This document shows positions 49,685 to 56,440 of a stretch of DNA of 64,000 nucleotides, in pieces (within the stretch, counting starts at the first letter, position 1; each line of letters begins with the position of its first letter). The notes beneath the pieces are model-generated. The model was not told the origin of the DNA. It did no database searches and saw only the letters and a list, made by a program, of their open reading frames with translations. The stretch is taken from contig CM067317.1 of the NCBI GenBank assembly GCA_034231615.1, positions 43,312,531 through 43,376,530 of the forward strand. The letters run 5' to 3'. Source of the stretch: Meghimatium bilineatum. Lineage: Eukaryota > Mollusca > Gastropoda > Stylommatophora > Philomycidae. The position numbers were made by a program, and so were the translations under genes.

Positions 49685-52660
49685 ATTCTTCTTCTTCTTC
49701 TTTCGTCCACTTGAAACATGTCTATATCTGTAATTCTGTCTCCTTAATAAATCTCACTGTCTTTTGTAGTTCATACAGTGTCCCATAGAGTTTTGATTCC
49801 AGTGTTGTTTCCTCTGGCCAATATGTCTGCCTCAACGTTTCATGCTCAGAACAATCTTGAAGTATATGCTTGGTACTCAGCACTGCCTGTCCACATGTAC
49901 ACATGGCCGTGTTGCCTATCTGGAACTTTGTATACATGTGACTGCGGAGTCGGTTGTGTCCTGTTCTGAGGCGTAGAATAACAACTTGTTCTGATCTATT
50001 CATAATGTGATAGTCATCTTGTGATGTTGTTTGTGGCTTTCTTATTGACTTGATCATCTGCTTTTTCTGATGGTAGGTGATTGATACATCTGGTTGGTCT
50101 TTGGCAGCACCTTCCTTAGCCAGTTGGTCTGCTTTTTCATTTCCTGGTATTCCACAGTAAGAGGGTATCCACGGCATGGTTACCCTATACTCGTAAGAAA
50201 GTGCATTAAGTAGTGTTTTCAAGTCTGTTAGTTTTCCAGACTGGAGAGCTTGAAGCACTGACCGTGCACCTGTCAGAAATACCACGGGCTGATGGCCAGG
50301 ATTGGAGTTCAGCAGTTTTTCAGTTGCTACCCTAATTGCCTGATTTTCGGCATAATAATTATTGCAGAATTTCCTTGTTAGTGTTCTGATCGTATCTCTA
50401 GGCTTGTGTGGATATTCTGTGCTGACCCATCTGTGTATACTCTAACCATATATTTTGTGAATATTCCTCATCCATGAAACTGAGGGTGACTGTTCTTCGC
50501 TGCACACTGTTCTGTTCGTCCTCGCTTTGTATTCCTTTCACGTGGGTCTGAATATATATTGGCATTCCATGCCTTTCACTCCAAGGGGTTTGTTCCGGTA
50601 CAGAGCTTGAGGGGCTGTCAACTTCAGGTAACTCTGTAAGTTGTCTATAGAGTCGTTAAGCTTGGTGGATAAAGCTGCTTCTTTTCAGTCGCCCCATTGC
50701 TAGATTTTGGAATCTTTCCTTTATTGATGATTTGGCATACACTCAAACTGTTCTGCTTTTAATAACACATTTGTGTCTCTGCGTTCGCCAAGAGTTTGCA
50801 TTCTTCCCTTTTTCTGCATCTCTACTACGGGTGTTGATTTCATTTTTCCCAACATTAACTTGAGTACCTGAATATGTACTTTATCTAGTTCTTGTAATGT
50901 GGTGCTTGACGCAGGACACCACGCAGGTGAACCATATTCCAGGTGTGGTCTTATGCCTTGCTAGTACATTTTACGGAGTATATACCCACTGGCTTCCCAT
51001 GTGTTTCCACTTAGTTTTCTCAGGATAGCTAACTTCCTCCTGGCTTTTGTTGTTGCTTTGGTTATGTACTGCTTCCACATCAGCGTATCATCAAAAGTAA
51101 CTCCGAGGTATGTGGGTTGTTTGTCTTCTTTCAAAGGCTCTCCGTCTATTTTGATAACACCGGCTTTTTGTTTTGTTGGGAGGGTAATTTTGAGTGTAGT
51201 GCTGGACTTATCTGTGTTAACGCTGATTCACCATCTATTTGCCCATAAGGTTAAGGCATCAATAGGGATTTGTATTTGTTTAGTGGCGACTGTCGCATGT
51301 TCTTCCGTGCACCATATCATCTGGTCGTCAGCATACATTGTCACTTTGATCCCGTGTGGTAGTTCGGCAACTAGGTCATTGATGTAAAACAAGAAAAGTG
51401 TGGGTGACAGGACTCCTCCCTGGGGAACTCCATGATACAGTAGGACTTTCTTGCTCTTGCGACTTATCCAAATGCACCCTGGCTCTTCTATTATGCAGGT
51501 ATGCTTTTACCCATTTTTACATTTTTGAGCTAACACTGCAATTTCGCAATTTCTTTAAGAGTCCTTCTTTTTAAACCTTGTCAAATGCTTTCCTGCGATG
51601 TATCCTTGCTGCTAGTACCAGTTTCTTTTCTTGGAAGGCGTCCTCTCTTGAGAGAGGTAGGTTGCTTGATCTTCAGTAGAGTAGCAATGTCTGAAGCTGC
51701 TTGCTCTGATACCAGAAGATTTCAACTTTCAAGGTACCACTGCATCCTTAGATTGATAATGCGTTCCCATATTTTGCATAAACAGCTTGTAAGGCTGATG
51801 GGCCTGTAGTTGGAGACTGTGTTGCCATATTTTCTTTATTTGAGGAGTTGTGTCATTATTGCTTCTCTCCACGCCTGTGGTACATTACCTGTGGACCAGC
51901 TTGTGTTAAAGATCTGCAGTAGCTTTGCTCTTGCTGCAATTCCCAGGTTTCTAATCATTTCATTGGACACACCATCAGTTCCAGAGGACTTTTTTATTTT
52001 TAATATGGATATTGCATACTCCAGTTCTTTCATTGTGATTGGTGCCTCCATGACTTCTGGTATAGGTTCGCCTTGTCCAATGTTTTGCTGGTTCTCTCAC
52101 ACTTTCCGTTGTTTGTCTGGGCTAACTTTGACGTTATTGTCTTTTGCAAAGAAATCTGTAAAGTAATCAGCTGCATGTTTACCTGTTAAAATGTTGAAGA
52201 TGGAATTCTGGTCTGTCTGTTATTAGGTGGAGCATCTGGTATTCTGCTCCATCCATATACACTTCCAGCTGACATGCATTGATATTGTTTTTAACAAGTG
52301 TCAGAATTCCACCCATTCGTCTGTCCTTAGGTCTGATCGGTAGCACTGGTAGCTTCTGATTGTAAAGGCTATATCACTGCTGAGGTGTGTTTCTTTGATA
52401 CAGAATACATTAACTTGTTCTTCACACAGGATATTTTCAAGCTCCAAGTTTTTACTGTATCCATCTCTTTTGCTGTTGACACCCTCAGCATTCCAGTGCA
52501 ATATTTTAATTGGTCATTGGTTTGTTTGGCCATTAGCTCTATTTCCTTGCCTCCTGGCTCCCCGGGGCAATTGAGGACTTCTAGTAATTGAAGTATAAGA
52601 CCCGGCACATCCCCTGCCTGAACGTTCGCCACAGGACAGGCACCATGACTATTAATAGAT
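49685..52660 (-). mobile_element. LINE-I2: RT and RNase H of an I-superfamily LINE, internally deleted
   Basis: From right to left: ORF2 start (52632, MANVQAGDVPG) and first part of the endonuclease (HWNAEGVNSKRDGYS, NVFCIKETHLSS). An abrupt jump at about 52190 removes the rest of the endonuclease. RT begins at 52051 (SSGTDGVSNEMIRNLG), with the active site YADD at 51325-51336 and LRKLSGNTWEASGYIL downstream. RNase H ends at about 50100 with WIPSYCGIPGNEKAD, where the usual His of PSHC is Tyr. The C-terminal region has MCTCG and ends LYELQKTVRFIKETELQI. The 3' UTR finishes in a (GAA)n tail (49687-49702 as cttcttcttcttt). Many frame breaks. Other copies: 20906-21303, 24887-25543 and 53560-55860. 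Confidence 0.88.
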
Positions 52661-53559: not shown

Positions 53560-53945
53560 AGGATTTGGCATATATGGAACCAGGCAGCATGGCAACTACA
53601 AAGCAGAATGTCTGGCTAAAGAAAGAGCTGCTGCTGATCAACCCGATGTGTAAATAGCGTTCCATTAAGAAGTAGATGATTAAAGAAATTAGACAGCCAA
53701 CTCCAACACAAAATGATTACTAAAATTATGAACATACCAGACCAAGCTATCATTCTGCGCCTCAGAACAGAACACAATCGACTCCACAGCCTCATGTATA
53801 CAAAGTTCAAGATAGGCAACACGACCATGTGTACTTGTGGACAGGCACATCAGACAGCAGATTCTTCAGGAATGTCGTGCATATTAAATGCTGAGACAAA
53901 TGCACGGGCCCAGAGAAAGAACAATGGAAGAAAAACTCTACAGGC

Positions 53946-54995
53946 CTCTGTACGCTGTCTCTGTACGCTCTCTCTGTACGCTCTGTACGCTCTCTACGCT
54001 CTCTCTGTATGCTCTCTATGTACACACTCTCTGTACGCTCTCTCTGTACGCTCTCTCTGTACGCTCTATCTGTACGCTTTCTCTGTACGCTCTGTACGCT
54101 CTATCTGTACGCTCTATCTGTACGCTCTCTCTGTACGCTCTCTCTGTACGCTCTATCTGTACGCTCTCTCTGTACGCTCTCTCTGTACGCTCTCTGTACG
54201 CTCTATCTGTACGCTCTATCTGTACGCTCTGTACGCTCTCTCTGTACGCTCTGTACGCTCTCTCTGTACGCTCTCTCTGTTCGCTCTGTACGTTCTCTCT
54301 GTACGCTCTCTCTGTACACTCTTTACGCTCTCGCCGTACGCTCTGTACGCTCTCTCTGCACGCTCTCTCTGTACGCTCTCTCTGTACACTCTTTATGCTC
54401 TCTCTGTACGCTCTCTACGTACGCTCTGTACGCTCTCTCTGTACGCTCTTTACGCTCTCTCTGTACGCTTTCTCTGTACACTCTTTACGCTCTCTCTGTA
54501 CGCTCTCGCCGTACGCTCTGTACGCTCTCTCTGTACGCTCTCTCTGTACGCTCTCGCCGTACGCTCTCGCCGTACGCTCTCGCCGTACGATCTGTACGCT
54601 CTCTCTGTACGCTCTCGCCGTACGCTCTCGCCGTACGATCTGTACGCTCTCTCTGTACGCTCTCTGTGTACGCTCTGTACGCTCTCTCTGTACGCTCTGT
54701 ACGCTCTCTCTGTACGCTCTCTCTGTACGCTCTCTGTGTACGCTCTCTGTGTACGCTCTCTGTACGCTCTCTGTACGCTCTCTCTGTACGCTCTCTCTGT
54801 ACTCTCTGTACGCTCTCTCTGTACGCTCTCTCTGTACGCTCTCTCTGTACGCTTTCTCTGTACGCTCTGTCTGTACGCTCTCTCTGTTCGCTCTGTACGC
54901 TCTCTCTGTACGCTCTCTCTGTACGCTCTGTCTGTACGCTCTCTCTGTACGCTCTGTCTGTACGCTCTGTACGCTCTGTCTGTACGCTCTGTACG
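53946..54995. repeat. 9/11/13-bp minisatellite inside LINE-I2 coding sequence
   Basis: About 1,050 bases built of ctctgtacg and longer forms (ctctctgtacg, ctctctctgtacg), with rarer variants (ctatctgtacg, ctcgccgtacg). The pure phrase ctctgtacg starts (53946-53954) and ends (54987-54995) the array; in the element it codes the Leu-Tyr before Glu-Leu-Gln. Pyrimidine-rich on the plus strand. Confidence 0.95.
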
Positions 54996-55033
54996 AGTTA
55001 CAAAAATCAATCAAGTTTATAGAAGAAAGAAAT

Positions 55034-55844
55034 CTTCAGATGTATTCACATTCCAGGCATACTTCAGATGTATTCCAGCCAAACTTCAGATGTATTCACA
55101 TTCCAGGCAAACTTCAGATGTATTCACATTCCAGGCAAACTTCAGATGTATTCCAGCCAAACTTAAGATGTATTCACATTCCAGCCAAACTTCAGATGTA
55201 TTCACATTCCAGGCAAACTTCAGATGTATTCCAGCCAAACTTCAGATATATTCACATTCCAGCCAAACTTCATATGTATTCACATTCCAGGCAAACTTCA
55301 GATGTATTCACATTCCAGGCAAACTTCAGATGTATTCACATTCCAGGCAAACTTCAGATGTATTCACATTCCAGCCAAACTTCAGATGTATTCACATTCC
55401 AGGCAAACTTCAGATGTATTCCAGCCAAACTTCAGATGTATTCACATTCCAGCCAAACTTCAGATGTATTCACATTCCAGGCAAACTTCAGATGTATTCA
55501 CATTCCAGGCAAACTTCAGATGTATTCACATTCCAGGCAAACTTCAGATGTATTCACATTCCAGGCAAACTTCAGATGTATTCACATTCCAGCCAAACTT
55601 CAGATGTATTCACATTCCAGGCAAACTTCAGATGTATTCCAGCCAAACTTCAGATGTATTCACAATCCAGGCAAACTTCAGATGTATTCACATTCCAGGC
55701 AAACTTCAGATGTATTCACATTCCAGGCAAACTTCAGATGTATTCACATTCCAGGCAAACTTCAGATGTATTCACATTCCAGGCAAACTTCAGATGTATT
55801 CACATTCCAGGCAAACTTCAGATGTATTCACATTCCAGGCAAAC
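55034..55844. repeat. 28-bp minisatellite inside LINE-I2 3' end
   Basis: About 30 units of 28 bases (cttcagatgtattcac then attccaggcaaa) mixed with a 22-base short form (cttcagatgtattcc then agccaaa) at several places. The right edge runs straight into gaaagaagaatgg, the LINE-I2 tail. Confidence 0.95.
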
Positions 55845-55941
55845 GAAAGAAGAATGGACTAAAGTAAACACGTTTTTTATTTGTAAAATTGTATTAAACT
55901 GTTTAGTGACAACTGACCTATAGATAAATAAAGTTGATGTC

Positions 55942-56440
55942 AACACACCTGTACGTGTTGACCTACAACACACCTGTAAGTGTTGACCTACAACACACCT
56001 GTACGTGTTGACCTACAACACACCTGTACGTGTTGACCTACAACACACCTGTACGTGTTGACCTACAACACACCTGTACGTGTTGACCTACAACACACCT
56101 GTACGTGTTGACCTACAACACACCTGTACGTGTTGACCTACAACACACCTGTACGTGTTGACTTACAACACACATGTACGTGTTGAACTGCAACACACCT
56201 GTACGTGTTGACCTACAACACACCTGTACGTGTTGACCTACAACACACCTGTACGTGTTGACCTACAACACACCTGTACGTGTTGACCTACAACACACCT
56301 GTACGTGTTGACCTACAACACACCTGTACGTGTTGAACTGCAACACACCTGTACGTGTTGACCTACAACACACCTGTAGATGTTGACCTGCAGCACACCT
56401 GTTCGTGTAGACCTGCAGCACACCTGTATGTGTTGATATG
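55942..56440. repeat. 25-bp minisatellite
   Basis: About 20 units of 25 bases (cacctgtacgtgttgaccta plus caaca), nearly identical except a gaactgcaac variant at two places and decayed units at the right end. Confidence 0.95.

What the first reader, a model, noticed from the sequence alone, without database searches (positions are those of the whole stretch)
53930..55005. A 1-kb minisatellite that grew from nine bases of LINE-I2 coding sequence
The last LINE-I2 codons read ...LYELQK... in the copy at 49690-50180. In the plus-strand copy the element reads EEKLYRPLY up to 53954 and resumes with ELQKSIKFIEE at 54996, with no residue lost or gained apart from the array. The array begins and ends on the phrase ctctgtacg, which is exactly the element's Leu-Tyr codon context. 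So the array appears to be an in-place expansion of a dated, identifiable seed and not an insertion. Cases where the pre-expansion sequence of a minisatellite is known from a paralogous repeat are useful for studying how arrays are born.
Basis: partly seen in the sequence, partly recalled or inferred. Interest (0 to 1): 0.8.

Follow-up and report, generated by a model that had tools for sequence, protein, structure and literature searches.

The report
Minisatellite born inside a dead retrotransposon
A 1-kb run of short repeats appears to have grown in place from nine letters inside an old dead jumping gene; this kind of event is known, but other copies of the same jumping gene carry their own, different repeat runs, which makes the births comparable.

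Summary
The array (53946-54995, 88 units, mainly 13 and 9 bp) lies inside a degenerate plus-strand LINE copy and begins and ends on CTCTGTACG. None of 31 other old-subfamily tails held here carries it: 21 have one exact CTCTGTACG at the point, 9 a one- or two-base variant, and one (L022) a different 73-bp array. A genome scan for a two-unit motif (up to 1 mismatch) gave 43 hits in 1.61 Gb, all in this array, so a near-identical donor is not in the assembly. Net gain 1,041 bp.

The neighbouring 28-bp array (55034-55844) is also in place in the same LINE tail; the element's GAAAGAAGAA end follows it.

Other tails carry other in-place arrays: 29-bp units at three loci, 22 and 34 bp at one each, 73 bp at two, 28 bp at one segmentally duplicated locus.

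That the tail is a hotspot is not shown: arrays cover 15.8% of the window and 11.8% of sampled 3' flanks, and the control counts did not complete by a busy machine. Minisatellites grown from transposable elements are in print, so the kind is known.

The parts
53591..53945 (+). degenerate LINE copy, part before the array (3' end of the coding region)
   Evidence: tblastx to young LINE L030 from 53591; blastn 73.9% over 53600-53952; 68-87% to other old-subfamily copies
53946..54995 (+). array 1: 88 units, mainly CTCTCTCTGTACG (13 bp) and CTCTGTACG (9 bp)
   Evidence: two-unit motif found only here
53946..53954 (+). left terminal 9-mer CTCTGTACG (seed)
54987..54995 (+). right terminal 9-mer CTCTGTACG; LINE resumes with AGTTACAAAA
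54996..55033 (+). LINE tail between the two arrays
   Evidence: aligned with paralogues
55034..55844 (+). array 2: 28-bp unit CTTCAGATGTATTCACATTCCAGGCAAA, about 30 copies, grown from the next segment of the same LINE tail
   Evidence: TRF; the matching segment (CTTCAGATATAAGCACATTCCAGGC and variants) is single copy in the 15 array-free tails aligned
55845..55854 (+). 3' end of the LINE (GAAAGAAGAA), resuming after array 2
   Evidence: young copies end in (GAA)n
49690..50200 (-). LINE copy of a younger family, without arrays, used as comparison (LYELQK)
   Evidence: 40 places scored, all at 95% identity or more, of 4395 candidates

Best explanation
An old LINE copy inserted here and decayed. 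Later a 9-bp stretch of its last codons (CTCTGTACG, Leu-Tyr plus one base) was tandemly duplicated in place by a slippage or microhomology-type error. A CTCT addition gave the 13-bp variant, and slippage or unequal exchange grew the set to 88 units. A second duplication of the next segment of the same tail gave the 28-bp array. Shown: single-seed sites in paralogues, in-place position, absence of the two-unit motif elsewhere, clustering of variants. Inferred: the molecular step, the order 9-mer before 13-mer, growth after and not during insertion, and the independence of the two arrays.
For: 31 other old-subfamily tails: 21 with one exact CTCTGTACG, 8 with a one-base and 1 with a two-base variant, 1 (L022) with a different 73-bp array; none has two adjacent 9- or 13-bp units (rows). 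L010/L011 and L026/L027 are near-identical pairs, so not all 31 are independent. 40 of 40 scored places of an array-free query cross the seed with a genome span within -10 to +9 bases of the query span. Two-unit motif: 43 of 43 hits in this array, control 0. The LINE continues on both sides of both arrays. Variants clustered, 0 of 5000 shuffles. Units less diverged (0.056 and 0.048 edits per base for 13- and 9-mers) than this LINE copy's end branch (0.14).
Against: No few-unit intermediate with the 9/13-bp unit was found. In a hand-read majority tail the longest exact direct repeat at spacing 9 is 2 bp and at 13 is 3 bp, so no 5-10 bp flanking-repeat signature. Arrays of partly similar CT-rich units exist elsewhere: L005 (C2) has a 13-bp unit that agrees at 11 of 13 bases by my reading, L003/L004/L006/L007 (one C7 locus) contain CTCTCTCTGTATG inside a 40-bp unit, L002 holds CTCTGTACG 5 times; none of the seven has the two-unit motif within 3 mismatches or a LINE-tail match. 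Low unit divergence may reflect homogenisation. One search's places are top-scoring hits (40 of 6384 candidates), which favours array-free copies; one is the query itself and at least two are loci already counted.
Confidence: 0.92

Rival explanations
1. A pre-existing array was inserted into the LINE and made a 9-bp target-site duplication of CTCTGTACG.
For: A one-9-mer empty site and two flanking 9-mers is also what a 9-bp duplication would leave. Similar CT-rich arrays exist elsewhere, such as the 13-bp array of L005.
Against: The flanking 9-mer is the repeat unit itself; the two-unit motif was found nowhere else, and not within 3 mismatches in the seven look-alike loci.
Confidence: 0.04
2. 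The array was made during reverse transcription (slippage or template jumping) and was there when the LINE inserted.
For: Some tail repeats were present at insertion: L022 starts inside a 73-bp unit, so later expansion alone cannot explain it; young copy L052 has a doubled tail, each copy with its own GAA end. In L092 and L096 the LINE begins close to the array.
Against: The window copy has about 355 bp of LINE before the array and no GAA tract between units; units are less diverged than the host copy; several array-free copies are 5'-truncated near the tail too.
Confidence: 0.1
3. The LINE family was amplified with this array already in it.
For: The 73-bp unit shows the same junction in L012 and L022, which could be inherited.
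Against: For the window unit no second locus was found.
Confidence: 0.01

Closest known systems
TE-derived tandem repeats of the human genome (Ahmed and Liang 2012, PMC3389668; passages and sections 3 and 13 seen)
   Same: Tandem arrays grown from part of a transposable element; 7,276 in human; two initiation models discussed
   Different: Human elements; the unexplained majority have mostly two units; here a LINE 3' coding end with 88 units
Alu-derived minisatellites (Jurka and Gentles 2006; not seen itself, only as described in PMC3389668)
   Same: Other copies show the pre-expansion sequence; short direct repeats flank the unit
   Different: The 29-bp arrays here have such a repeat (AAAAC); the 9-bp array does not
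Minisatellites within mouse LTRs and SINE B1 (Kelly 1994, Bois et al.; seen only as citations and table rows in PMC6947457)
   Same: Arrays originating inside dispersed elements
   Different: Other element class and host
Initiation models of Haber and Louis 1998 and Taylor and Breden 2000 (seen only as described or cited in PMC3389668, PMC6947457, PMC2820488)
   Same: First duplication by slippage involving short repeats, then growth
   Different: Array 1 lacks the 5-10 bp flanking repeat

Membership tests
TE-derived minisatellite | tandem array with a unit of about minisatellite length | tested here: met
   (13 and 9 bp; 28 bp for array 2)
TE-derived minisatellite | unit is part of the TE, present once in other copies | tested here: met
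   9-mer; 28-bp segment:
TE-derived minisatellite | TE continues on both sides without loss | tested here: met
Haber-Louis type origin | 5-10 bp direct repeats flank the single-copy unit | tested here: not met
   Array 1: longest exact run 2 bp at spacing 9, 3 bp at spacing 13 in a hand-read majority tail. Array 2: spacing 28 gives 1-5 bp in 25 real copies, no better than other spacings; a 7-bp run at spacing 28 in the majority tail lies in another segment. The 29-bp arrays of other loci do fit (AAAAC, 5 bp), but runs of 5-7 bp also occur at spacings 23, 42, 45, 48, 57
Taylor-Breden type origin | incomplete terminal unit | tested here: inconclusive
   last unit is a complete 9-mer, but shorter than the common 13-mer
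hypervariable minisatellite (VNTR) | length differs between individuals | not testable with these tools
   one assembly only; segmental duplicates at C7:16.2M differ (about 34 against 9.1 units of 28 bp)
I-group LINE | RT and RNase H domains in one ORF | tested here: met
   young relative L031: RVT_1 1.9e-27, RNase_H 3.9e-16; that this marks the I group is recalled
I-group LINE | endonuclease domain and tree position | not tested

The most novel reading that the evidence does not exclude
The 3' end of one LINE family is a recurrent cradle of minisatellites: about 100 bp of the same tail started tandem arrays independently at many loci, with at least six unit lengths (9/13, 22, 28, 29, 34, 73 bp). 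That would be a replicated natural experiment in which the starting sequence is known and unit length and copy number differ.
Probability: 0.45. Interest if true: 0.6.

Novelty: new member of a known kind. Interest (0 to 1): 0.45.

Why it matters
How minisatellites start is harder to study than how they grow, because the starting sequence is usually gone. Here it is preserved in many paralogues, and the same 100 bp carries arrays of different unit length at several loci, with copy numbers from about 2 to 88 and one comparison between segmental duplicates. That allows initiation to be tested against flanking repeats, age and position. The phenomenon itself is known from Alu, B1 and LTR elements.

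Tried and rejected
Insertion from a donor array: made unlikely. Look-alike loci L002-L008 (best matches after the window, 66-71%): CT-rich arrays with 12-, 40-, 13- and 14-bp units (TRF on L002, L003, L005, L008). They do share pieces: L002 holds CTCTGTACG 5 times, L003/L004/L006/L007 hold CTCTCTCTGTATG many times, L005 has a similar 13-bp unit. None has the two-unit motif within 3 mismatches nor a LINE-tail match.

Idea that 28-bp arrays are set by an AAAC repeat 28 bp apart: not supported. Idea that the tail is a hotspot: not settled. In 30 old-subfamily loci (L010-L028, L069-L079) 7 have an array inside or touching the element (L012, L014, L022, L023, L026, L027, L073), four or five independent events in 8,749 bases; the window has 20 arrays in 64 kb. 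Those loci came from a query that held both arrays, which favours tails and 28-bp units. Young family: of 30 copies aligned (L029-L058) one, L052, has a tail doubling; the L051 and L057 arrays lie outside the aligned LINE, and that of L034 starts at its GAA end. One script pattern missed L055. Tree of left flanks: 17 of 35 loci were long enough to enter, with the window and one young copy; no supported fork, so it shows neither common nor separate descent. Control counts (ACGAGTTACAAAAC alone; ATGAAATGCTGAGG in tandem) were asked many times and never answered; no Pfam family for the LINE C-terminal piece or for the array read as protein.

Full report
The window lies on contig C20 of a 1.61-Gb genome in 32 contigs; the species was not identified. 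The array in question is at 53946-54995. It has 88 units, 62 of 13 bp and 21 of 9 bp, and starts and ends on the exact 9-mer CTCTGTACG. The plus strand of the array has no stop in any of its three frames, and the gain over a single 9-mer is 1,041 bp.

The host is a LINE copy. A young relative encodes RT and RNase H; its ORF ends in LYELQKTVSFIKETELQI and a stop, followed by about 20 bases and a (GAA)n tail. The window's plus-strand copy belongs to an older, more diverged subfamily (68-87% identity to the held relatives over the left flank). Its end branch is about 0.14 substitutions per site in a tree without supported forks.

Empty sites. Of 31 other old-subfamily tails held (20, 11), 21 have one exact CTCTGTACG at the point, 8 a one-base variant (L012, L013, L018, L020, L072, L073, L076, L079), 1 a two-base variant (L024), and L022 a 73-bp array that includes the 9-mer; none has two adjacent 9- or 13-bp units. 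Some of the 31 have other arrays (L012, L014, L022, L026, L027) and two pairs are near-identical duplicates. In 40 of 40 scored places (of 6384 candidates) of a search with an array-free copy, the match crosses the seed with a genome span within -10 to +9 bases of the query span; that ranking favours uninterrupted copies, and the query's own place is one of the 40.

Uniqueness. The motif CTCTGTACGCTCTCTCTGTACGCTCT with up to one mismatch has 43 hits in the genome, all in this array; the backwards control has none. So no near-identical donor is in the assembly. Partly similar CT-rich arrays do exist: the seven look-alike loci share short pieces of the unit, and L005 has a 13-bp unit close to it, but none has the two-unit motif within 3 mismatches or any LINE-tail match. 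Variants of the unit cluster along the array (ATCT type at units 10-22, CGCC type at 32-57, GTCT type at 77-86, counted from 0; 0 of 5000 shuffles as clustered), as expected of stepwise local growth.

The second array. At 55034-55844 lies an array of a 28-bp unit. Its seed is the next stretch of the same LINE tail (CTTCAGATATAAGCACATTCCAGGC in relatives), and after it the element's end GAAAGAAGAA resumes. One dead LINE copy thus carries two in-place arrays within roughly its last 100 original bases.

Other arrays at the same tail. 29-bp units at C7:42.17M (3.2 copies), C9:48.93M (10.2) and C22:3.686M (18.2). 34-bp unit at C25:6.208M (10.8), whose LINE copy also has a 38-bp array (16 copies) in its coding part. 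22-bp unit at C24:2.551M (13.7) (one search had 19 hits, its backwards control 2). 73-bp unit at C13:0.42M (4.5) and about two copies at C18:8.53M. 28-bp unit at C7:16.24M, 16.31M and 16.32M, segmental duplicates with about 34, 9.1 and 9.1 copies. The single-copy form of the 29-bp unit lies between two AAAAC repeats, 5 bp, as in the Haber-Louis model; the 9-bp unit has no such repeat, and runs of 5 bp or more also occur at other spacings. Whether the three 29-bp loci are separate births or share an ancestor with two copies is open. These loci were found by patterns that demand tandem seeds or by a query with arrays, so their number is no rate.

Not every tail array is a later growth. L022 begins inside a 73-bp unit, so more than one copy was there when it inserted. 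Young copy L052 has two tails, each with its own GAA end, which looks like template jumping during insertion (inference).

Is the tail special? Not shown. Arrays of period 7 or more and score 100 or more cover 10,117 of 64,000 bases in 20 places in the window, one of them an ATA run, and 5,040 of 42,713 bases in the 3' flanks of the 29 young copies L030-L058. In 30 old copies four or five independent arrays lie in 8,749 bases of element, perhaps about twice the window's density, but from a sample chosen by the tail. Arrays also occur at the body of the element (L023, L073, L095). The control counts planned to settle this did not complete.

Known kind. Ahmed and Liang 2012 (PMC3389668; passages and sections 3 and 13) count 7,276 TE-derived tandem repeats in human and describe two initiation models. 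PMC6947457 (passages) lists minisatellites from Alu, B1 and MaLR. PMC9659126 and PMC2820488 were seen in passages. The literature searches were on minisatellite origin and mollusc genomes (mollusc was my guess); none was made for this LINE by name, so I claim nothing about its absence from print. Verdict: real, in place, a new member of a known kind, worth more as one of a comparable set than alone.

Noticed in passing
window 1-64000: 20 tandem arrays (period 7 or more, score 100 or more; one is an ATA run) cover 10,117 bp, 15.8% of the window.
   Followed up: partly
window 55941-56436: A third array (25-bp unit CAACACACCTGTACGTGTTGACCTA, about 20 copies) starts 86 bp after the LINE ends; its seed was not sought.
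   Followed up: no
L095 27-635 (reverse complement): 38-bp array (16 copies) in place in the coding part of a LINE copy that also has a 34-bp array in its tail.
   Followed up: partly
L023 290-500, L073 734-935: 30-bp and 62-bp arrays at the body region of old LINE copies, near the same codons as the 38-bp array of L095 by my reading; a second possible recurrent spot.
   Followed up: no
L052 tail: Young LINE copy with a doubled 3' tail of about 60 bp, each copy with its own (GAA)n end; looks like template jumping at insertion.
   Followed up: partly
L022 343-826: 5'-truncated LINE tail repeat (73 bp, 4.5 copies) lying directly beside a 30-bp minisatellite.
   Followed up: no
L014, L026, L027 (C7:16.24-16.32M): Segmental duplicates of one LINE tail whose 28-bp arrays differ in length, about 34 against 9.1 units.
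   Followed up: partly
L005 (C2:103.5M): A degenerate 13-bp CT-rich array whose unit resembles array 1's 13-mer (11 of 13 by my reading) but without LINE context.
   Followed up: partly
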